DNA of 53,413 nt from an uncultured Duganella sp. (GTDB lineage: Bacteria > Pseudomonadota > Gammaproteobacteria > Burkholderiales > Burkholderiaceae), in contig CAMLSG010000007.1 of the NCBI GenBank assembly GCA_946482635.1, positions 1-53,413 on the forward strand. Reading direction: 5' to 3'. Shown piece by piece: positions 38,679-53,413 of this stretch; positions within the stretch are counted from its first letter, which is position 1, and each line of letters begins with the position of its first letter. The position numbers and the translations under genes were made by a program. The notes under the pieces are model-generated. The model was not told the DNA's origin and made no database searches. It saw nothing but the letters and a program-made list of their open reading frames with translations.

Positions 38679-40508
38679 TCACTCGACCGTCACCGATTTA
38701 GCCAGGTTGCGAGGCTTGTCGACATCGGTACCGCGTGCCAAGGCGGTGTGATAGGCGAGCAGCTGCAGCGCAACCACGTGCAGGATCGGGGACAATTGGC
38801 CGTAGTGTTCCGGCAGGCGGATCACGTGCAGTCCGTCGCCGGAAGTAATGCGCGAATCGACGTCGGCGAAGACGTAGAGCTGGCCACCGCGGGCGCGCAC
38901 TTCCTGCATGTTCGACTTCAGTTTTTCCAGCAGCGCGTCGTTCGGGGCGATGGTCACGACCGGCATTTCGTCGGTCACCAGCGCCAGCGGGCCGTGTTTC
39001 AGTTCACCGGCTGGATAGGCTTCCGCGTGGATGTACGAAATCTCTTTCAGCTTCAGCGCGCCTTCCAGGGCGATCGGGTAGTGCATGCCGCGGCCCAGGA
39101 ACAGGGCGTTTTCCTTGCGCGCGAATTCTTCGGCCCAGGCGATGATCTGCGGTTCCAGCGCCAGCACGGCGGCGATGGCGGAAGGCAGGTGGCGCATGTC
39201 TTTCAGGTGTGCGGATTCCTGTTCTTCGGTCAGCAGGCCATTCACTTGCGCCAGGCTGAGGGTCAGCAGGAACAGGGCGGCGAGCTGGGTGGTGAAGGCT
39301 TTGGTCGATGCCACGCCAACTTCAACACCGGCGCGGGTGATGTAGGCCAGTTTGCACTCGCGCACCATGGCGCTGGTGGCCACGTTGCAGATGGTCAGGG
39401 TGTGTTCCATGCCCAGGCTGCGCGCGTGCTTCAGCGCGGCGATGGTGTCGGCGGTTTCGCCGGACTGGGAGATGGTCACCACCAGGGTTTTCGGATTCGG
39501 CACGCTGTCGCGGTAGCGGTATTCGGAGGCGATCTCCACGCTGACCGGTACCTTGGCGATCGATTCGATCCAGTATTTTGCGGTCGATCCGGCGTAGTAG
39601 CTGGTGCCGCAGGCGAGGATCAGCACGCGGTCGATTTCCTTGAATACCTTGTAGGCGCCGTCGCCGAACAGTTCCGGCATGATGCCGGTCACGCCTTCCA
39701 GCGTGTCGCCGACTACGCGTGGCTGCTCGAAGATTTCCTTCTGCATGAAGTGGCGGTATGGGCCCAGTTCCGCAGCGCCGGTGTGGGCGTGCACGGTCTT
39801 CACTTCGCGCTGTACTTGTTTGCCGTCGACATCAACGATCCAGACGCGGCCCAGTTGCAGGTCGACCACGTCGCCTTCTTCCAGGTAGATGATCTGGTCG
39901 GTGGTGCCGGCCAGCGCCATCGCATCGGAGGCGACGAAGTTTTCACCCTGGCCGATGCCGACGATCAGCGGCGAGCCCTGGCGCGCGGCGACCACGCGGT
40001 GTGGCTCTTCGCGGCAGAACACGGCGATAGCGTAAGCGCCATGCAGGCGTTTGACGGCGTGCTGCACGGTGTCGAACAGGTCACCGTTATACATGTGGTC
40101 AACGAGGTGGGCGATCACTTCGGTGTCGGTCTGGCTGGTGAAGACGTAACCCAGGGCGGTCAGTTCGGCGCGCAGTTCGTCGTGGTTTTCAATGATGCCG
40201 TTGTGGACCAGGGCGATGCGGGCGGCCGATTCGCTTGGCGAGAAATGCGGGTGGGCGTTATGCGATGCTGGGGCGCCGTGGGTGGCCCATCGGGTGTGGG
40301 CGATGCCGGTGAAGCCGTTCAGGCCACCTTCGTTGATCTGCTTTTCGAGGTCGGCCACGCGGGAGGTACTGCGCGAGCGCTGCAGCTTGCCGTCCAGGTG
40401 CAGGGCGACGCCGCAGGAGTCGTAGCCGCGGTATTCCAGGCGCTTCAGGCCTTCAACCAGGATAGGGGTGATATTGCGCTGGGCGACAGCGCCGACGATA
40501 CCGCACAT
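38679..40508 (-). CDS. glmS: Glutamine--fructose-6-phosphate aminotransferase (isomerizing) GlmS
   Basis: 609 residues from ATG 40508, giving the mature start [10 protein letters not shown] with the essential N-terminal Cys; GAGG precedes it. The class II glutaminase domain (about 1-240) contains [20 protein letters not shown]. The two SIS domains follow, with [18 protein letters not shown] and [20 protein letters not shown]. The C-terminus [13 protein letters not shown] is invariant. It makes glucosamine-6-phosphate, the entry to cell-wall amino sugar synthesis; glmU, for a later step, lies 1.5 kb beyond its start. Confidence 0.97.
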
Positions 40509-40590
40509 ACGAAACCTCATTCTTAAAGAGTTAATGGATGCATGCTAGAGCAGTCGCGAAGAAATTTGCTTTCTCATTTAGCGATACTGT

Positions 40591-40637: not shown

Positions 40638-41096
40638 ATGGACTTTGATGAAATTGATCGGCGTATCCTGAACGCCCTACAGAAGAATGCCTCCCAAACC
40701 AATGCCGAATTGGCTGCCACCGTACACGTTTCGGCGCCCACCTGTTTGCGTCGGGTCAAGCATTTGCGCGATTCCGGCGTCATCGAGCGCGAGGTGGCCC
40801 TGGTGGCGCCAGGCAAGGTCGGCGCCCACCTGACAGCGGTTGTGGAAATCTCCTTAGATATCCAGGCCGCCGAACGGATGGCGGAATTCGAGGCGCTGGT
40901 GGCGCCGGAACCGGCTGTGCTGCAGTGTTACCGCGTGTCGCCCGGGCCAGATTTCGTGCTGATCGTCCAGGTGGCTGATATGCTGGCCTATCACGCGCTG
41001 GCCCACCGTTTATTCGCAGGCCAGGCCAATGTGCGCAACGTCAAAGCCTACTTTTCCACTTTCCGCAGCAAGTTCGAAACCAGTATTCCGGTCTGA
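40638..41096 (+). CDS. Lrp/AsnC-family transcriptional regulator
   Basis: 152 residues. The N-terminal helix-turn-helix reads EIDRRILNALQKNASQTNAE, then LAATVHVSAPTCLRRVKHLR. The C-terminal RAM ligand domain contains AVLQCYRVSPGPDFVLIVQV. It is divergent from glmS with a 129-bp gap carrying a long inverted repeat. Lrp/AsnC proteins sense amino acids; the ligand is not evident. The start ATG lacks a good ribosome site, which may be related to the repeat just upstream. Confidence 0.9.
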   Translation: MDFDEIDRRILNALQKNASQTNAELAATVHVSAPTCLRRVKHLRDSGVIEREVALVAPGKVGAHLTAVVEISLDIQAAERMAEFEALVAPEPAVLQCYRVSPGPDFVLIVQVADMLAYHALAHRLFAGQANVRNVKAYFSTFRSKFETSIPV

Positions 41097-41101
41097 ACAA
41101 C

Positions 41102-41409
41102 TTATCCCGGCTTATACCCGGCTGAACACAGGCTTATACACAAGTTTTTCCACAAATGCGCACAAGCCAGATGCAGTTATCCAGCGTTCCGCACCGCATA
41201 TTCAGTCGTTTTCCTCGGGGTTTCCCACATCGTTATCCACAATTTGGAGTTATCCAAGGTTATACGCAGCTACTCCCCAGACTTTTCCACAATTGCCGCG
41301 CCAATGCTTGCTGTGTGAATAATTCATGCATACCACTTCGTGCTTATCCAATGCCTTTCCCATGGTTTTCAGGCGGAATTGCACTGGCTTTTACACATCT
41401 TTATCCACA
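41102..41409 (+). repeat. Cluster of DnaA-box-like nonamers upstream of acpH
   Basis: This 328-bp gap (41097-41424) holds no gene. Six nonamers match TTWTNCACA exactly, all on the plus strand: 41134, 41146, 41233, 41283, 41389 and 41401 (start positions); two are the perfect TTATCCACA. Further near matches lie at 41177, 41221, 41250, 41260 and 41344, and one minus-strand TGTGAATAA at 41314. The last box ends 15 bp before the acpH ATG. It resembles a DnaA-binding array; whether it is an origin part, a titration site or a promoter control region is unknown. Confidence 0.7.
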
Positions 41410-41424
41410 GCGCTAGAATGAGGC

Positions 41425-42021
41425 ATGAACTACCTCGCACATATCTACCTGGCACGCCATAGCGAAGCGGCGATGGTCGGCGCCATGCTGGGCGATTTCG
41501 TCAAAGCGAACGGTGGGGATCACTATGCGCCCGAGATCGCGAACGAGATTGCGCTGCACCGGTTCATCGATTCGTTCACGGACAGTCACCCGGTCGTCAC
41601 CGAGGCCAAGAGCCTGTTCACCGAGGGCAGGCGACGTTATGCAGGCATCGTGCTGGACGTGTTCTACGACCATATCCTGAGCCAGCGCTGGGACGAATAC
41701 TGCGAGGAGCCGCGCCAGGAGCTGATCGAGCGCTTTTACGGCGCTTTGGCGGCGCATGAGGGGCAATTGCCGGAGCGGCTGCGCGATATCCTGCCCAAGC
41801 TGATCAAGCAGGACTGGCTGGGTGCTTATGGAGAATTCAGCGGGGTCGAGCTGGCGCTGACCCGCATGTCGGACAGGCTAAGCCGCAATGGCCACCTGCT
41901 GCGCGAGGGCATCGGGGAAGTGCAGCAGCATTACGACGCGATCGCCGAAGGATTCGATCGCTTCTTCCCCGAACTGGTGAAATTTACTTACCAGCGCCGC
42001 CGCCAGTTTTCGGTAGCTTAG
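41425..42021 (+). CDS. acpH: ACP phosphodiesterase AcpH (DUF479)
   Basis: 198 residues; GAGG immediately precedes ATG 41425. It begins [20 protein letters not shown], followed by [10 protein letters not shown], typical of AcpH, and has [17 protein letters not shown] and [14 protein letters not shown] with the HD-like metal residues. AcpH removes the 4'-phosphopantetheine arm from acyl carrier protein. It follows the DnaA-box-like cluster directly and overlaps the convergent glmU end by four bases. Confidence 0.88.
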
Positions 42022-43397
42022 GTTTTCTTGACCTTCACTGGGCGCTTCCAGCCTTCGATCGTGATTTGCTTAGGGCGCGAGATAGTCAGCTTGCCGGCCG
42101 GCGCATCCTTGGTCAGCGTCGTGCCGGCGCCGATGGTTGCGCCTGCGCCCACGGTTACTGGGGCCACGAGCTGGCTGTCGCTGCCGATAAAGGCGTCGTC
42201 TTCGATCACGGTGCGGAACTTGTTTGCGCCATCGTAGTTGCAGGTGATGGTGCCGGCGCCGATGTTCACGCGCGAACCGACGGTTGCGTCGCCCACATAG
42301 GCCAGGTGGTTTGCCTTGCTGTGCGCGGCAACCTGGCTGTTCTTGATCTCGACGAAGTTACCCACATGGACGTCCTCGCCCAGTTCGGTGCCGGGGCGCA
42401 GGCGGGCATATGGGCCGATCTGGCCCTTGTCGCCCACCACCGCTTCTTCGATATGGGTGAAGGCCTTGATATTGGCGCCGGCGCCAATCTTGGCGTTGAT
42501 CAGCACGCAGTTCGGGCCAATCGTTGCGCCTTCGCCGATTTCGACCTTGCCTTCGAAGACGCAGCCGACGTCGATGGTCACGTCGCGGCCACAAGTCAGT
42601 TCGCCGCGCACGTCGATGCGCGCCGGGTCGGCCAGGGTCACGCCTTTGTCCAGCAGGGCGTTGGCGACGCTGCGCTGGTAGATGCGTTCCAGTTCGGCCA
42701 GTTGCGCCTTGCTGTTCACGCCCAGCACTTCCCATGCTGCGGCAGGGTGGGCCGATACGACTTGCACGCCTTCCTCCACCGCCATGGCGACGATATCGGT
42801 CAGGTAGTACTCGCCTTGCGCGTTTTCGTTTTTCAGCTTGCCCAGCCACTGTTTCAGCTTGGCGGTCGGGATCACCATGATGCCGGAATTGATTTCCTTA
42901 ATCATGCGCTCGGCTTCTGTGGCATCCTTCTCTTCAACGATGCGCTGGATGGCGCCGCCCACGCGGACGATGCGGCCCAGGCCGAACGGGTTGTCCTGCA
43001 CCACGGTCAGGATGCCCAGCTTGTCCTTGCCGGCGGCTTCGGCCAGGCGTTTCAGCGATGCGGCGGAAGTCAGCGGCACGTCGCCATACAGCACCAGGGT
43101 TGGCTGGTCATCGTCGAGGTGCTCCAGGCCTTGCTGGACCGCGTGGCCGGTACCCAGTTGCGGTTCCTGCAACGCGGCGGAAATTTCGGTGCCAGGAACG
43201 GCCTTGTGCTTGTCCAGCGAAGCCAGCACCGCTGCGCCGCCGTGACCGTAAATAACGCACAATTTAGCTGGAGACAGGCTGCGCGCGGTATCGATGACGT
43301 GAGACAACAGGGACTTGCCAGCAACGGGATGTAAAACTTTTGGCAGCGCCGACTGCATGCGTTTACCCATGCCAGCGGCGAGAATGACGACGTTCAT
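42018..43397 (-). CDS. glmU: Bifunctional GlmU (glucosamine-1-phosphate acetyltransferase / GlcNAc-1-P uridyltransferase)
   Basis: 459 residues, the normal length. The uridyltransferase half starts [20 protein letters not shown], with YGDVPLTS for metal binding. The C-terminal left-handed beta-helix carries hexapeptide repeats and [31 protein letters not shown] and [10 protein letters not shown], the acetyltransferase active-site region. It makes UDP-GlcNAc for peptidoglycan and lipopolysaccharide. The divergent lipoprotein gene starts 29 bp away. Confidence 0.97.
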
Positions 43398-47865: not shown

Positions 47866-50800
47866 TTAGGCGTCGAGGGTCATCAGGCTGGCGTTGCCGC
47901 CGGCGGCGGTGGTGTTGACGCACAGGGCGCGTTCGGCCACCAGGCGCCACAGGGGGATGTCGCCTTCTTCTGTCGTATCGATTACTGAGACGATCGCGCC
48001 GTCGCGTGCGGCCAGTTCTGGGCGCAGCTTGGCGCCGAGGCTGGATTCCACCAGTGCGATCTGGAAGTCGGCCTTGGCCAGGTCGGTGGCGGATACCGTC
48101 TGGATCGCTGCTTTTACGTCGCCGGACAGGTCTGCCGGCAGGGCGCCTTCAACGACCAAAGCGCGGTTGCCGGTCGACAGGGCGGCCGCTATCTGGTTCA
48201 GCAGCACTTCCGTATTCGATGCGAGGCAGGCGATATTGCCGCGTGGGACGTAGGCCAGCGTATTGCGCTCGCCGGTCGGTCCTGGCAGGGCGATCAGGCT
48301 GCCCACCGGCGTGGTGCGTGCATAGCTTTCGATATGCGCGGCCAGGCGGCTCTTGCCTTGTGCCTTGGCCCATGCGGCCAGCGAATCGATCGCTGGCACG
48401 CTTTGGCGCTGGTGGCGGTCCAGTGTGACGGCGCCGCGCTGCAGGCGTTTCAGGTACAGCGGGCCGCCGGCTTTCGGGCCGGTGCCGGATTTGCCTTCAC
48501 CGCCAAACGGCTGCACACCCACCACGGCACCCACGATATTGCGGTTCACGTAGATGTTGCCGACGTGCGCGCTGGAAGTGATGTAGTCGATGGTTTCGTC
48601 GATACGCGAGTGCACGCCCAGGGTCAGGCCAAAGCCGCTGCCGTTGATCTGCTCAATCACTTTTGGCAGTTCGGAACGCTTGTAGCGGATCACGTGCATC
48701 ACGGGGCCGAATACTTCCTTGGTCAGCTCGGACAGGGAGCGGATTTCCAGCACGGTCGGCGGCACGAAAGTGCCGGCATCGGCGCCTGGCACTTCCAGCG
48801 AGAAGCTGGCCTTGGCGTGGGCGCGTACTTTTTCGATGTGGTTCAGCAGGTTTTGCTGCGCTTCCTTGTCGATCACTGGTCCGATGTCGGTCACCAGGCG
48901 GTCCGGCGAGCCGATTCGCAGTTCCTTCATCGCGCCTTTGAGCATCTTGATGGTCTTGTCGGCGATGTCTTCCTGCAGGAACAGCACGCGCAGGGCGGAG
49001 CAGCGTTGGCCGGCGCTGTCGAAGGCGGACGAAATCGCGTCGCCCACCACTTGTTCCGGCAGCGAGGAGGAGTCGACGATCATGGCGTTCTGGCCGCCGG
49101 TTTCGGCGATCAGCGGGATGTCCACATTTTCAGCAGCGGCGCGCTTGGCGAGTGTGCGGTTGATCAGTTGCGCTACTTCGGTGGAACCGGTGAAGATCAC
49201 GCCTTTAACGCGTGCATCGTTGCACAGGCCTGCGCCAACCACTTCGCCGCGGCCTGGCAGGAATTGCAGTGCGACGCGCGGTACGCCGGCTTCGTGCAGC
49301 AGTTCTACTGCGCGCTGGGCGATCAGCGGGGTTTGTTCTGCTGGTTTTGCGAGCACCACGTTGCCGGCCGCCAGTGCTGCAGCAGCCTGCCCGGTGAAGA
49401 TCGCCAGCGGGAAGTTCCATGGGCTGATGCAGGTCACAGGGCCCAGCGCCAGCGTATTGGTGGAGCCGCGCACTTGTACGGCGTAATAGCGCAGGAAGTC
49501 GACTGCTTCGCGTACTTCGGCAATTGCGTTCGGCAGCGATTTGCCTGCTTCACGTACGGCCAGCGCCATCAGCTCAAGTTTGTGGGTTTCGAACAGGTCG
49601 GCAGCCCGATCCAGGCAGGCGGCGCGTTGCGATGGCTCGGTGGTTTGCCAATCCATGGCGAATTGGCTGGCGGCGTTCAGGGCGTTGTTGACGTCTTCGG
49701 CTGTCGCTTCGGTCACGGAGCCGACGACATCGTCTTTGCGAGCCGGATTGATCACCGGTTGGGAGGCCTGGCCGGCGCTGGCTTCAACAGCCAGCAGCGG
49801 GCCGGCATTCCAGCTACGCGGTTGTGCCAGCGCCAGCGATACTTCGCGCAACACGTCTTCGTTCGAGAGGTCGATGCCGGTGGAGTTCTTGCGCTCGGCG
49901 CCGAACATGTCCAGCGGCAGGGCGATGCCGGTGTGCGGCTGGCCATTCAGGTTGCGTGCCACTTCGATTGGGTTCGAAATCAGCGAATCAACCGGGATGC
50001 TTTCGTCGACGATCTGGTTGACGAACGAGGAGTTGGCGCCGTTTTCGAGCAGGCGGCGTACCAGGTAGGCCAGCAGGGTTTCGTGCGAACCGACCGGTGC
50101 ATAGATGCGGCAAGCCTTGTCCAGGTTTTCAGCGCCGACCACCTGGTCGTACAAGGTTTCGCCCATGCCGTGCAGGCATTGGAACTCATAGCCGTTGATG
50201 CCGTCGCGCTTGGCCCAGGTGTAAATCGTGGACAGGGTTTGTGCGTTGTGGGTCGCGAATTGCGCGTAGATCACGTCGGTCGCGGCCAGCAGGCGCTGCG
50301 CGCAAGCGAGGTAGGAGACGTCGGTGTAGACCTTGCGGGTGTAGACCGGGTATCCAGGCATGCCGTCAACCTGGGCGCGCTTGATTTCGGCATCCCAGTA
50401 AGCGCCTTTCACCAGGCGCACCATGAACTTGCGGCCGCTGCGCTTTGCCAGGTCGACCAGGTAGTCGATCACGAATGGGCAGCGCTTCTGGTAAGCCTGC
50501 ACCACGAAGCCGATGCCGTCGAAGCCTTCCAGTTCCGGGTTGAAGGCCATTGCTTCCATCAGGTCCAGCGACAGTTCCAGGCGATCGGCTTCTTCGGCGT
50601 CGATGTTCAGGCCGATGTTATAGCCCTTGGCCAGCTTGACCAGCGCGGTCAGGCGCGGCAGCAGTTCGGACATCACGCGTTCGCGCTGGGCGCGGCTGTA
50701 GCGTGGGTGCAGTGCAGACAGTTTGACGGAAATGCCAGGGCCATTGCGGATGCCGCGGCCGTTCGATGCCTTGCCAATCGCGTGGATCGCTTTTTCGTAA

Positions 50801-51495
50801 GCGGCGTAGTAGTTGGCTGCATCGGCTTCGGTCAGCGCTGCTTCGCCCAGCATGTCGTAGGAGTAGCGATAGCCGCGGGCTTCGTTGTCCTTGCCGTTCT
50901 TGATCGCTTCATCGATGGTCTGGCCGGTGACGAATTGGTTGCCCAGCATGCGCATTGCCAGGTCCACGCCTTTGCGAATCAGTGGTTCGCCGCCTTTGGC
51001 AATCAGGCTGGTAATGGCCGAACCCAGGCCTTCTTCGCTGGAGGAGCTGACCAGCTTGCCGGTAATCAGCAGGCCCCAGGTTGCAGCATTCACGAACATC
51101 GAAGGCGATTCGCCCAGGTGCTTGCGCCAGTCGCCCTTGGAAATCTTATCGGCGATCAGGCGGTCGGCGGTTGCCGAGTCTGGAATACGCAACAGCGCTT
51201 CGGCGAGGCACATCAGGGCGATGCCTTCTTCGGACGACAGCGAGAATTGATGCATCAGCGCATCCACGCCGGAAGAACGGGTACGTTTTTCACGAACAGC
51301 GGTCACCAGGCGCTTGGCCAGGGACTGTGCATCCTGGGTCGTTTCAGGAGAACCGACGTTAATTTGCGACAGAAGCCATTGCACGGCAGTTTGTTCGTCG
51401 CGGCGATACGCAGCAGTGATGGCGCTGCGCAGCGGAGTCGGATCTCGCAGGATTTCTGCTTGAAGTGCGGCGAACGGAGTGGTGTTCAGATGCAT
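47866..51495 (-). CDS. putA: Bifunctional proline dehydrogenase / L-glutamate gamma-semialdehyde dehydrogenase PutA
   Basis: 1209 residues. The flavin proline dehydrogenase barrel covers about residues 180-490 (MVRLVKGAYWDAEIKRAQVD; RRLLENGANSSFVNQIVDES). The aldehyde dehydrogenase domain covers about 560-1030, with catalytic Cys832 in SAGQRCSALRV and Glu798 in IAETGGQNAM. A C-terminal ALDH-like tail of about 180 residues completes the long PutA type. The N-terminus lacks the ribbon-helix-helix domain of enteric PutA, so it should not repress itself. It oxidises proline to glutamate. An Lrp-type gene is divergent, and a terminator-like hairpin sits in the leader. Confidence 0.97.
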   Translation of the reverse strand: MHLNTTPFAALQAEILRDPTPLRSAITAAYRRDEQTAVQWLLSQINVGSPETTQDAQSLAKRLVTAVREKRTRSSGVDALMHQFSLSSEEGIALMCLAEALLRIPDSATADRLIADKISKGDWRKHLGESPSMFVNAATWGLLITGKLVSSSSEEGLGSAITSLIAKGGEPLIRKGVDLAMRMLGNQFVTGQTIDEAIKNGKDNEARGYRYSYDMLGEAALTEADAANYYAAYEKAIHAIGKASNGRGIRNGPGISVKLSALHPRYSRAQRERVMSELLPRLTALVKLAKGYNIGLNIDAEEADRLELSLDLMEAMAFNPELEGFDGIGFVVQAYQKRCPFVIDYLVDLAKRSGRKFMVRLVKGAYWDAEIKRAQVDGMPGYPVYTRKVYTDVSYLACAQRLLAATDVIYAQFATHNAQTLSTIYTWAKRDGINGYEFQCLHGMGETLYDQVVGAENLDKACRIYAPVGSHETLLAYLVRRLLENGANSSFVNQIVDESIPVDSLISNPIEVARNLNGQPHTGIALPLDMFGAERKNSTGIDLSNEDVLREVSLALAQPRSWNAGPLLAVEASAGQASQPVINPARKDDVVGSVTEATAEDVNNALNAASQFAMDWQTTEPSQRAACLDRAADLFETHKLELMALAVREAGKSLPNAIAEVREAVDFLRYYAVQVRGSTNTLALGPVTCISPWNFPLAIFTGQAAAALAAGNVVLAKPAEQTPLIAQRAVELLHEAGVPRVALQFLPGRGEVVGAGLCNDARVKGVIFTGSTEVAQLINRTLAKRAAAENVDIPLIAETGGQNAMIVDSSSLPEQVVGDAISSAFDSAGQRCSALRVLFLQEDIADKTIKMLKGAMKELRIGSPDRLVTDIGPVIDKEAQQNLLNHIEKVRAHAKASFSLEVPGADAGTFVPPTVLEIRSLSELTKEVFGPVMHVIRYKRSELPKVIEQINGSGFGLTLGVHSRIDETIDYITSSAHVGNIYVNRNIVGAVVGVQPFGGEGKSGTGPKAGGPLYLKRLQRGAVTLDRHQRQSVPAIDSLAAWAKAQGKSRLAAHIESYARTTPVGSLIALPGPTGERNTLAYVPRGNIACLASNTEVLLNQIAAALSTGNRALVVEGALPADLSGDVKAAIQTVSATDLAKADFQIALVESSLGAKLRPELAARDGAIVSVIDTTEEGDIPLWRLVAERALCVNTTAAGGNASLMTLDA

Positions 51496-51707: not shown

Positions 51708-52163
51708 ATGCTGGACAAGATCAGTAAGAAGATTCTGGCCGAGTTGCAGAACGATGGCCGGATCAGCAACGTTGAATTGGCTGCGCGAGTGAACCTCTCG
51801 CCTGCCGCTTGCCTGGAGCGGGTGCGAAAACTGCACGAAGCAGGCTATATCATGGGTTATACGGCGCAGCTGAACCCGCAGCTACTGGATGTTTCGCTGC
51901 TGGTGTTCATCGAAGTTGTACTGGATCGGACGACGCCGGAGGTGTTTGATGCCTTCAAACATAGCGTCCAGCTGATTCCTGAAGTACTGGAATGCCACAT
52001 GGTCGCCGGCGGTTTTGACTACCTCGTCAAGGCTCGCGTAAAGGATATGGCGGCTTACCGTGAATTCCTTGGCAAAACTCTGCTGCAGAAGGGTGTGCGC
52101 GAGACGCACACTTATGCGGTGATGGAAGAAGTCAAAAACACCACCAAACTGCCGATCAAGTAA
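51708..52163 (+). CDS. Lrp/AsnC-family regulator, probable proline-utilisation regulator
   Basis: 151 residues; GGGGAT precedes ATG 51708. The helix-turn-helix is DKISKKILAELQNDGRISNV, then ELAARVNLSPAACLERVRKL. The RAM domain contains VLECHMVAGGFDYLVKARVK. It is close to Lrp/PutR-type proteins. Being divergent from putA across a 212-bp AT-rich gap, it is the likely proline-responsive activator of putA, a role known for PutR/Lrp in other proteobacteria and needed here because PutA lacks a DNA-binding domain. The 3' end overlaps mtnN by eight bases. Confidence 0.9.
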   Translation: MLDKISKKILAELQNDGRISNVELAARVNLSPAACLERVRKLHEAGYIMGYTAQLNPQLLDVSLLVFIEVVLDRTTPEVFDAFKHSVQLIPEVLECHMVAGGFDYLVKARVKDMAAYREFLGKTLLQKGVRETHTYAVMEEVKNTTKLPIK

Positions 52164-52860
52164 GCGATTTGCAGAAGTTCTGGATGACGCCATATGCGTA
52201 GCGAGCGGCGACGGTTTGCACAAAGTGCATGAAATCCGTCGCCGCTTCTTCATTTGCGTTGTCCGAAATCGTCCTCATGATGGCAAACGGCACTCCCAGT
52301 TCGTGACAGACTTGGGCGACTGCTGCGCCTTCCATTTCCACTGCCAATAATTCAGGCAGTGCGTCTTTCAGGGCTTCCAGATGGGCCCGGTCTTTGATGA
52401 ATTGATCTCCGCTGCCAATGAGGCCTCGGTGCACTTGTGCATCGTTTTGCAGGAATTCGCGTGTGGCCAGGCTCAGTTTCAGGCTCAATTCGCGGTCGGT
52501 AGGCATGCGCGAGAGCCCTGTCAGAGGAATTTCGAAGCGTGGGAACAACGGGCTGGCATCAAAATCGTGTTGAGCCAGGGAATCCGCGACGACAACGTCT
52601 CCAATTCGAACCCCAAGGTCTGCAGAACCGGCGACGCCGGTAAAAATAATGTGGGTAACGTTGAACTTCTCCACAAGTGTCGCAGCTGTGACTGCTGCAG
52701 CTACCTTTCCAATTCGCGATAAAACGGCCACAGAATCGATTTTCCAGAGTTTTCCGGCTGTGTACTCACGCTTACCGTGGATGAGCTTGTAGGGGCTCTC
52801 CATGGCTTCCAGTAGACCCTGTTGTTCTTCTGCCAAGGCTGAAATGATCCCGAGACGCAT
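52156..52860 (-). CDS. mtnN: 5'-methylthioadenosine/S-adenosylhomocysteine nucleosidase MtnN
   Basis: 234 residues. MRLGIISALAEEQQGLLEAM at the N-terminus, IIFTGVAGSADLGVRIGDVV, LAVEMEGAAVAQVC (substrate-binding Met-Glu) and MRTISDNANEEA with the catalytic Asp are all family hallmarks. It cleaves adenine from methylthioadenosine and S-adenosylhomocysteine, recycling SAM by-products. That may suit a chromosome region that encodes seven SAM-dependent corrin methylations. It is convergent with the Lrp-type gene. Confidence 0.94.
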   Translation of the reverse strand: MRLGIISALAEEQQGLLEAMESPYKLIHGKREYTAGKLWKIDSVAVLSRIGKVAAAVTAATLVEKFNVTHIIFTGVAGSADLGVRIGDVVVADSLAQHDFDASPLFPRFEIPLTGLSRMPTDRELSLKLSLATREFLQNDAQVHRGLIGSGDQFIKDRAHLEALKDALPELLAVEMEGAAVAQVCHELGVPFAIMRTISDNANEEAATDFMHFVQTVAARYAYGVIQNFCKSLT

Positions 52861-52932
52861 GCGCGAGTTGTCCTCTATTTATTTAAAGTTGTATACGAAA
52901 GGATAGTAGTAGATAGTAAACGCGACCCTGTC

Positions 52933-53083
52933 TGTGGATAAACCTGTTAACATCCACAGAATCAGAAGTTTACGAATTGTAGAACTGGCTGGACAAGAAC
53001 TGCGTCTAAATCGGATGAGTTCTGAACAAATTTTGTGCGTGAACTCAAAAATGGTGTTTACGCACATTCGATCCTGTGGATAT
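52933..53083. repeat. DnaA-box-like sites between mtnN and the EAL gene
   Basis: The 223-bp gap 52861-53083 has no gene. It contains TGTGGATAA (52933-52941, a perfect minus-strand DnaA box) and TGTGGATAT (53075-53083, one mismatch), plus ATCCACAG near 52952. A TTATCAACA lies just beyond at 53092-53100 within the EAL gene. The sites are weaker and fewer than at 41102-41409. Confidence 0.45.
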
Positions 53084-53413
53084 TCATTGACTTATCAACA
53101 GGTGGTGCAGTTTTTCAGCAGAAATTGGCTCTCCGAACAGGTATCCCTGGCCAAAATCGCAACCTGCAGCCATCAAAATTTCCAGTTGGGCTTCGTTTTC
53201 GACCTTTTCGGCGATGACTTTGATGTCTAGCTTGTGCGCCATGGTGACAATTGCCTCGCACAGGAGCTGGTTGTCGCTGAAACTGGTGTCCAGCTTGAGG
53301 AAATCGATCTTGAAACGCTTCAGGAAGTTCAGGGACGAGTAGCCATGCCCGAAATCGTCCAGCGAAATCTGGAGATCGGCGTCCCTCAATGACTGCACAC
53401 GCTGTACGACTTC
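53084..53413 (-). CDS. EAL-domain protein, C-terminal fragment (N-terminus off the right edge)
   Basis: 109 C-terminal residues; the frame is open to the window edge. ISLDDFGHGYSSLNFLKRFK, FLKLDTSFSDN, KVIAEKVENEAQLEILMAAG and CDFGQGYLFGEPIS align with the EAL domain of cyclic-di-GMP phosphodiesterases. Substitutions in usually invariant spots (DDFGTG to DDFGHG, D-R-SF to DTSF, AEGVE to AEKVE) are visible, while the DD pair and the Glu of the VE motif remain. Whether it is an active enzyme cannot be judged without the N-terminal part. Confidence 0.88.
   Translation of the reverse strand, partial: EVVQRVQSLRDADLQISLDDFGHGYSSLNFLKRFKIDFLKLDTSFSDNQLLCEAIVTMAHKLDIKVIAEKVENEAQLEILMAAGCDFGQGYLFGEPISAEKLHHLLISQ

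What the first reader, a model, noticed from the sequence alone, without database searches (positions are those of the whole stretch)
41097..41424. Dense same-strand array of DnaA-box-like nonamers in front of acpH
Six exact TTWTNCACA matches, including two TTATCCACA, all lie on one strand within 276 bp, plus at least five near matches. With equal base use I would expect about 0.02 matches in this length on both strands. The shared orientation is unusual. The last box ends 15 bp before the acpH start, so DnaA could control an acyl-carrier-protein enzyme, or the locus could titrate DnaA like datA or recharge it like DARS. No dnaA gene or clear AT-rich unwinding region is nearby, so a full origin is less likely.
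Basis: partly seen in the sequence, partly recalled or inferred. Interest (0 to 1): 0.75.

Follow-up and report, generated by a model that had tools for sequence, protein, structure and literature searches.

The report
Phased DnaA-box array beside replication origin
Next to the probable chromosome replication origin of these soil bacteria lies a long, regularly spaced, one-directional row of likely binding sites for the replication starter protein DnaA, kept in nearly all related genomes examined, which may help to decide when and how often the chromosome is copied.

Summary
Between the AsnC/Lrp gene and acpH (41102-41409) lie 7 exact TTWTNCACA boxes, 6 on + and 1 on -. With weaker boxes there are 15 + sites, six of 14 gaps being 10-12 bp; shuffles average 5.7 sites and 0.3 such gaps. 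It follows AsnC in 70 of 71 sequences read (window plus 70 genus genomes), about 9:1 on one strand, and no other window in five long stretches is phased like it. In 34 of 71 convergent glmU comes next, so a promoter role at acpH is at most secondary. The array is not an origin. A probable oriC lies 11.5 kb away at the window's end: TTATCCACA, 11 bp, DnaA-trios, AT-rich DNA. That module is 11.8-25.5 kb from AsnC in 44 of 44 genomes with both on one contig; dnaA is 253-421 kb away. Best reading (inferred): an origin-linked DnaA-filament site that sequesters or inactivates DnaA just after initiation, in a genus where no SeqA was found (0 of 74). DnaA binding is untested; strand-composition evidence for the oriC call is mixed.

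The parts
41102..41409 (+). unidirectional phased DnaA-box array (15 + sites at matrix score >=4)
41134..41142 (+). exact box TTATACACA, 12 bp before the next box
41146..41154 (+). exact box TTTTCCACA
41233..41241 (+). exact box TTATCCACA, identical in all 8 sequences aligned (window, L126-L131, L153)
41283..41291 (+). exact box TTTTCCACA, identical in the same 8
41314..41322 (-). exact box TTATTCACA, the only exact minus-strand box of the array
41389..41397 (+). exact box TTTTACACA, overlaps the -35-like hexamer of acpH; identical in 7 of the 8 aligned (not L153)
41401..41409 (+). exact box TTATCCACA, inside the acpH promoter-like spacer; identical in all 8 aligned
41390..41419 (+). promoter-like TTTACA-18-TAGAAT in front of acpH; the ATG follows 5 bp later, so a leaderless message is possible
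40638..41096 (+). AsnC/Lrp-family regulator gene, the conserved left neighbour of the array
41425..42021 (+). acpH (Pfam ACP_PD), right neighbour in 20 of 71 sequences
42018..43397 (-). glmU (name recalled; hexapeptide and nucleotidyltransferase domains), convergent; next after the array in 34 of 71 sequences
38679..40520 (-). glmS (name recalled; glutamine amidotransferase and SIS domains)
52933..52941 (-). TTATCCACA of the probable oriC unwinding module, 11.5 kb from the array
52907..52921 (-). DnaA-trio element GTTTACTATCTACTA, 11 bp after the box; AT-rich DNA follows towards 52860
53058..53100 (.). three weaker boxes on the far side of the probable oriC (53058 +, 53075 -, 53092 +)
52156..52860 (-). 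mtnN-like gene (named by eye, no family search); the same N-terminal motif follows the trio in 47 of 49 loci from 43 genomes

Best explanation
The array is a non-coding, origin-linked DnaA-filament platform. About 15 strong and weak DnaA boxes, nearly all in one direction and many about one helical turn apart, would let DnaA (chiefly ATP-DnaA) load head to tail into one filament, as on one half of an oriC, but with no unwinding element, so no opening follows. Because it sits 12-25 kb from the probable oriC, it is copied almost at once after initiation. The doubled platform would then remove (titrate) or inactivate DnaA and help to prevent re-initiation, in a genus where no SeqA was found. Shown: the array, its direction, phasing, conservation and position next to an oriC-like module. 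Inferred: DnaA binding, filament formation, and the negative effect on initiation.
For: 15 + against 2 - sites and 6 phased gaps in the window, reached by 0 of 2000 shuffles. In 71 sequences (window plus 70 genomes): 1040 + against 116 - sites, with 498 of 969 gaps at 11-12 bp against 7.4 of 268 in shuffles. In 34 dissimilar representatives: 252 gaps of 10-12 bp against a mean of 5 and a maximum of 13 in 100 shuffles. At least 3 such gaps in 70 of 71; in five long stretches (1.65 Mb) the array has 6-10 and every other window at most 2. Conservation sits mainly on the box letters, with weaker signal in the spacer. Convergent glmU follows in 34 of 71. The oriC-like module is 11.8-25.5 kb from AsnC in 44 of 44 genomes with both on one contig, always in the same relative orientation. 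Exact TTATCCACA crowds around the array: within 100 kb (or to the contig end) 17 of 30 genome copies in G005, 16 of 27 in G003, 11 of 22 in G006, 10 of 29 in G002, 11 of 31 in G001 (counted by eye; G004's list was cut). SeqA: 0 of 74, E. coli control positive. In E. coli, DnaA boxes are enriched near oriC and argued to titrate DnaA (PMC12371093, section 6 read; other passages). Same-orientation boxes favour head-to-tail ATP-DnaA oligomers (PMC10316083, passages).
Against: No binding or in vivo data. The oriC call is itself a prediction: in G024 cumulative GC skew keeps falling past the module to about 5.01-5.02 Mb, G018 is flat over about 500 kb, and the KOPS-like octamer GGGCAGGG shows no switch at the module in G024 or G063. 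A regular array could equally inactivate, recharge or deliver DnaA. In B. subtilis, oriC-proximal DnaA-box clusters have a strong effect only when all six are removed (PMC5295017, passages). Outside the genus exact boxes after AsnC were seen in only 1 of 11 readable best loci as a group, and one more had a single box.
Confidence: 0.5

Rival explanations
1. A datA- or DARS-like catalytic locus: DnaA assembled on the array changes its nucleotide state (ATP hydrolysis or ADP release) rather than just being held.
For: Non-coding DnaA-box cluster in an intergenic gap, close to the probable oriC, directly behind a gene whose read-through could disturb it; strong transcription through datA or DARS abolishes their effect in E. 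coli (PMC5010248, passages).
Against: datA needs an IHF site and DARS2 needs IHF and Fis sites (PMC4585315, passages); the exact IHF consensus is absent from the window array and present in 1 of 71 arrays. datA has 5 boxes, DARS1 3 and DARS2 6, against a median of 17 + sites in 520 bp here.
Confidence: 0.2
2. The true oriC is elsewhere, for example the priA-hemE gap (172 kb from dnaA in G018, about 118 kb in G024) or the dnaA promoter. The trio module would then be something else, and the array some 186-421 kb from the origin, like a datA at a distance.
For: G024 cumulative GC skew bottoms near 5.01-5.02 Mb, between the priA-hemE gap (4.948 Mb) and dnaA (5.067 Mb). The octamer GGGCAGGG does not switch at the module: in G024 5 of 5 are minus on one side and 6 of 8 minus on the next 100 kb of the other; in G063 4 of 5 are plus on the left and 10 of 11 plus on the right. 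The G024 priA-hemE gap holds TTCTCCACAAAGTTATCCACA, like the commonest box pair listed for the family.
Against: In the 0-620 kb of G018 read, parS occurs only about 13 kb beyond the trio module. The lowest cumulative skew of the 400 kb of G063 read falls at 400-420 kb, where the module lies (413.8 kb). The trio 15-mer has a single copy in G018 and in G024, at the module.
Confidence: 0.22
3. A distant part of the origin: DnaA filaments formed on the array are brought to oriC by looping and promote unwinding, as in a split origin.
For: Same side and orientation relative to the module in 44 of 44 genomes; one-directional boxes resemble one half of an oriC (PMC10316083, passages).
Against: The distance varies twofold (11.8-25.5 kb), and known split origins are far more compact (recalled). 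No trio match in the window array and at most 62.5% AT in any 40 bp.
Confidence: 0.12
4. A transcriptional control region: DnaA represses acpH, or acts on AsnC through its 3' end.
For: The last two boxes overlap TTTACA-18-TAGAAT, 5 bp before the acpH ATG. Of the 8 sequences aligned, the last TTATCCACA and the TAGAAT are identical in 8 and the TTTTACACA in 7.
Against: acpH was not found next within 1.5 kb in 51 of 71 sequences; in 34 of them convergent glmU follows, so neither neighbour starts at the array.
Confidence: 0.1
5. The array is the replication origin itself.
For: Densest cluster of matrix-scored boxes in 3 of 4 stretches counted (G024, G005, window; not G018, where the trio module's cluster ranks first), and top for phasing in 5 of 5.
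Against: No trio match, no AT-rich stretch. A separate module with box, 11-bp spacer, trios and AT-rich DNA lies 11.8-25.5 kb away from AsnC, with parS beyond it in the four genomes checked.
Confidence: 0.04

Closest known systems
B. subtilis oriC-proximal DnaA-box clusters (DBCs; Okumura et al. 2012, not held; seen as described in PMC5295017, passages)
   Same: DnaA-box clusters outside the origin but near it; removal of all six causes early initiation, consistent with DnaA titration.
   Different: Six clusters there; here one long one-directional array with 10-12 bp phasing, plus scattered single boxes. Effect here untested.
E. coli datA
   Same: Non-coding DnaA-box locus on the origin side of the chromosome, copied early.
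   Different: datA has 5 boxes and an essential IHF site (PMC4585315, passages) and lies about 10% of the chromosome from oriC (PMC5010248, passages); here 15 + sites in the window, no exact IHF consensus, and 12-25 kb from the probable oriC.
E. coli DARS1 / DARS2
   Same: Non-coding DnaA-box cluster.
   Different: 3 and 6 boxes; DARS2 needs IHF and Fis; relative distances to oriC 0.33 and 0.21.
DnaA-oligomerising region of E. coli or Thermotoga maritima oriC (PMC10316083, passages)
   Same: Same-orientation boxes that guide head-to-tail DnaA oligomers.
   Different: Five same-orientation boxes per half in E. coli and five boxes in the T. maritima minimal origin, beside an unwinding element; here a longer array with none.
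DnaA-box enrichment around E. coli oriC (PMC12371093, section 6 read)
   Same: Boxes enriched near the origin, argued to titrate DnaA; the E. coli preference is for the lagging strand, which the array would share if oriC is as predicted (my inference).
   Different: A regional density there; a discrete conserved element here, with a regional excess around it.

Membership tests
DnaA-box cluster outside oriC (DBC-like) | Several DnaA boxes packed beyond chance | tested here: met
   7 exact boxes; 15 + weighted sites, reached by 0 of 2000 shuffles
DnaA-box cluster outside oriC (DBC-like) | Conserved and near, but not in, the origin | tested here: met
   70 of 71 sequences; AsnC 11.8-25.5 kb from the oriC-like module in 44 of 44; depends on the oriC prediction
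DnaA-box cluster outside oriC (DBC-like) | DnaA bound in vivo; removal advances initiation | not testable with these tools
   needs ChIP-seq and a deletion
datA | IHF site between essential boxes | tested here: not met
   exact WATCAANNNNTTR: 0 in the window array, 1 of 71 arrays; degenerate sites not excluded
datA | DnaA-ATP hydrolysis at the locus | not testable with these tools
   biochemistry
DARS | Three-box core with ADP-releasing activity (DARS2 also needs IHF and Fis sites) | not testable with these tools
   core layout not compared; exact IHF consensus absent; Fis not tested
oriC (the array itself) | Unwinding element: trios or AT-rich DNA beside boxes | tested here: not met
   no trio match in the window array; at most 62.5% AT in any 40 bp
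oriC / BUS (element at 52.86-52.94 kb) | DnaA box, spacer (peak at 10-13 bp; PMC8287927, passages), trios | tested here: met
   perfect TTATCCACA 11 bp (48) or 12 bp (1) before the element in 49 of 49 loci, from 43 genomes (six of them counted twice), and 11 bp in the window. 5 of the 48 genomes with the element were not cut out; 26 of 74 have neither exact string and were not searched for variants
oriC / BUS (element at 52.86-52.94 kb) | parS near | tested here: met
   parS 12-16 kb beyond in 4 of 4 genomes checked (G005, G018, G024, G063); the window ends before that point
oriC / BUS (element at 52.86-52.94 kb) | Strand-composition turn at the site | tested here: inconclusive
   GC skew supports in G063; weak in G005 (flat to the left with a local low near 222 kb, rising to the right); flat in G018; against in G024. 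The octamer GGGCAGGG shows no switch in G024 or G063

The most novel reading that the evidence does not exclude
A distinct class of replication control element: a one-directional, helically phased DnaA-filament array without an unwinding element, kept 12-25 kb from an oriC that has left dnaA. It would act as a once-per-cycle, origin-linked brake doing the job of SeqA or datA in this branch of Burkholderiales.
Probability: 0.35. Interest if true: 0.8.

Novelty: new variant of a known kind. Interest (0 to 1): 0.64.

Why it matters
How bacteria without SeqA, and with no datA known to me, limit initiation is open for many phyla. Here a compact element, its position and its pattern are conserved across a genus, which makes a titration-by-filament model directly testable by one deletion and one ChIP experiment. 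The work also predicts a dnaA-distant oriC for this genus. On print: no paper in the library held all of Oxalobacteraceae, oriC and DnaA (0). Searches listed 15 of 49 and 12 of 68 papers; none of those listed joined one of these organisms with DnaA boxes or a replication origin. Only this open-licence library was searched.

Tried and rejected
Array as origin: rejected (no trios, no AT-rich stretch, separate oriC-like module). Array as acpH promoter region: kept only as a secondary role. Simple minisatellite: Tandem Repeats Finder reports only 3.6 copies of an 11-bp unit at 41101-41139, and conservation lies mainly on box letters. RNA element: no Rfam match at E <= 1 in 40900-41600. GC skew and the octamer GGGCAGGG (polarised over most of G018) as origin locators: too noisy or mixed near the origin. 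A first reading of the lists as 'all plus strand' was dropped, because those lists appear to show forward matches first; it stands uncorrected in notebook entry 3 and is withdrawn in entry 5. The conclusion in entry 3 that skew excludes an origin near the array was dropped with it. G018 coordinates are wrong by up to several hundred bases, because 99-base gaps between pieces had been closed; three of the G018 stretches printed therefore miss their clusters, and only later calls (45, 46) were used for G018 places. Structure prediction, protein-homology and RNA-model tools were not used.

Full report
WHAT IS THERE. The window comes from a relative of Duganella sp. Root1480D1, Root336D2 and CF458, Pseudoduganella violaceinigra, P. 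guangdongensis and Massilia eburnea: their acpH proteins are 94-97% identical to the window's, and the next relatives fall to 65%. Its own genome is not held. The gap between an AsnC/Lrp gene (40638-41096) and acpH (41425-42021) is 328 bp, 47% GC against 62% for the window. It holds seven exact TTWTNCACA, six on + and one on -. A matrix that I wrote from the published consensus, not trained on these arrays, adds weaker boxes: 15 + and 2 - sites with score >=4, six of the 14 gaps between + sites being 10-12 bp. In 2000 dinucleotide shuffles the means were 5.7 and 1.3 sites and 0.28 such gaps, and none reached 15 sites or 6 gaps.

CONSERVATION. L001-L006 keep 4-7 exact boxes in front of acpH, mostly at the same offsets. 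Of the next 17 acpH loci (L007-L023), 15 have no exact box within 1.2 kb upstream of acpH and two (L009, L011) have one each at about -710. In the GTDB genus of P. violaceinigra (74 genomes held) the AsnC gene is found in 73. I read what follows AsnC in 70 of these 73 (G015, G050 and G051 were not fetched) plus the window: 71 sequences. Exact boxes within 600 bp: 233 on + and 9 on -; 66 of 71 have at least one. With weak boxes, 1040 + and 116 - sites in the first 420 bp (shuffles 338 and 103). Of 969 gaps between neighbouring + sites, 498 are 11-12 bp; shuffles give 7.4 of 268. As the genomes are related I repeated this on 34 arrays sharing under 15% of 8-mers pairwise: 252 gaps of 10-12 bp against a mean of 5 and a maximum of 13 in 100 shuffles. 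At least three such gaps occur in 70 of 71. G063 (L174), with none just after AsnC, has its array about 2 kb further on, at 398.4 kb. In five long stretches (G005, G018, G024, G063 and the window; 1.65 Mb) the array is the top window each time, with 6-10 phased gaps against at most 2 anywhere else. Within a unit, the TTATCCACA letters carry most of the information and spacer letters less.

NEIGHBOURS. After the array comes glmU in convergent orientation in 34 of 71, acpH on the same strand in 20 (the window included), and neither within 1.5 kb in 17. So the array does not depend on acpH. In the window clade the final box pair overlaps a promoter-like TTTACA-18-TAGAAT ending 5 bp before the acpH ATG, which would make acpH a possible by-stander target.

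WHERE THE ORIGIN IS. dnaA lies about 253-421 kb from AsnC in the 22 genomes that have both on one contig (read off). Six dnaA loci of 4.4 kb carry 2-4 exact boxes each. At the right end of the window, in front of an mtnN-like gene, is TTATCCACA (52933-52941, minus), 11 bp, then GTTTACTATCTACTACTATCC and AT-rich DNA. This fits the published unwinding module of box, spacer with a peak at 10-13 bp, and trios (PMC8287927, passages). The 15-mer GTTTACTATCTACTA occurs exactly once in 35 of 74 genomes and not in 39. The variant GTTTACTACTACTA occurs once in 19 of 74. Together that is 48 of 74; the other 26 have neither exact string and were not searched for variants. In 44 of the 48 the element is on the AsnC contig, 11.8-25.5 kb away (median 14.9), always on the opposite strand; in 4 it is on another contig. 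Loci were cut out for 43 of the 48 genomes (49 loci, six genomes counted twice): in 49 of 49 a perfect TTATCCACA precedes the element by 11 bp (48) or 12 bp (1). parS sites lie 12-16 kb beyond it in G005, G018 and G024 and nowhere else in the stretches read, which include 0-620 kb of G018 less some 99-base gaps; the same holds for the 400 kb of G063. Cumulative GC skew over the 400 kb of G063 is lowest at 400-420 kb, and the module is at 413.8 kb. G005 is nearly flat to the left, with a local low near 222 kb that is not the lowest value of the stretch, and rises to the right; its module is at 238 kb. Against: G018 is flat between about 0 and 520 kb; in G024 the skew keeps falling past the module to about 5.01-5.02 Mb; and the octamer GGGCAGGG does not change strand at the module, being 5 of 5 minus on one side and 6 of 8 minus on the next 100 kb of the other in G024, and 4 of 5 plus on the left and 10 of 11 plus on the right in G063. 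I hold the oriC assignment at about 0.75.

MECHANISM. Same-orientation boxes in each half of E. coli oriC favour head-to-tail ATP-DnaA oligomers (PMC10316083, passages). The array has that arrangement, longer, without a trio match or AT-rich DNA (at most 62.5% AT in any 40 bp). The simplest reading is a filament site that occupies DnaA but opens nothing. Being 12-25 kb from oriC it would be duplicated within tens of seconds of initiation (fork speed recalled), which suits a brake. In E. coli, boxes are enriched near oriC, argued to titrate DnaA, and prefer the lagging strand (PMC12371093, section 6); the array boxes would lie on that strand if the origin is at 52.9 kb. No SeqA was found in 74 genomes, with the E. 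coli control positive. Exact TTATCCACA is also crowded around the array: within 100 kb, or to the contig end, 17 of 30 genome copies in G005, 16 of 27 in G003, 11 of 22 in G006, 10 of 29 in G002 and 11 of 31 in G001 (counted by eye; the G004 list was cut). Binding, filament formation and the sign of the effect are inferred.

OUTSIDE THE GENUS. Of 15 other genomes searched, 13 have an AsnC match. I looked for exact boxes in the 900 bp after the 12 best loci (L369-L380). L369 (Janthinobacterium sp. TND4EL3) has three, including a pair 12 bp apart; L380 has one at 663; nine have none; L375 could not be read, as only 12 bases follow. Phasing was not scored there. Box pairs 12 bp apart are common in the family (188 of 294 genomes; the reversed control pattern in 3, read by eye), and the commonest pair in the capped list is TTATCCACAAAGTTATCCACA, a pair not seen in the window's array.

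VERDICT. A real, strongly conserved DnaA-box array, linked to a probable oriC, with a phasing not known to me elsewhere outside origins; a new variant of the known kind 'DnaA-box cluster that controls initiation', if the function is as inferred.

Noticed in passing
window 52860-53100: Probable oriC unwinding module (box, 11-bp spacer, DnaA-trios, AT-rich) in front of an mtnN-like gene, far from dnaA.
   Followed up: yes
L087 (G005:C22) 237.7-241.6 kb; L340 (G063) 413.8-414.5 kb; L282 (G024) 4745.4-4748.4 kb: The unwinding module seems to occur twice in a row, about 0.5 kb apart in G063, about 2 kb in G024 and about 3.3 kb in G005, where a 990-codon frame (EAL-like by eye, not tested) lies between: a possible double origin module. 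Six genomes hold both exact trio strings 0.27-0.42 kb apart.
   Followed up: partly
L265 (G018 171.7-172.4 kb); L292 (G024 4948.3-4948.95 kb); perhaps L330 (G063 210.2-210.8 kb, neighbours not checked): Another DnaA-box cluster, between priA-like and hemE-like genes in G018 (named by eye), with TTCTCCACAAAGTTATCCACA in G024; possible older or rival origin, or control of priA.
   Followed up: partly
G001-G006, within about 100 kb of the array: Perfect TTATCCACA boxes recur at similar distances from the array in several relatives. In G005, 9 of the 13 outside the array in the stretch read lie inside frames called by a crude ORF script. Why they are kept is unknown.
   Followed up: partly
294 genomes of the family: Tandem DnaA-box pairs 12 bp apart in 188 of 294 genomes; in several, two or three TTATCCACAAAGTTATCCACA pairs lie about 400-800 bp apart, perhaps their oriC.
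   Followed up: no
window 47866-51495 and 51708-52163: A PutA-like proline utilisation gene and a second AsnC/Lrp-like gene lie between the array and the probable oriC (identified by eye).
   Followed up: no
window 41390-41425: The acpH promoter-like site ends 5 bp before the start codon, which suggests a leaderless message.
   Followed up: no
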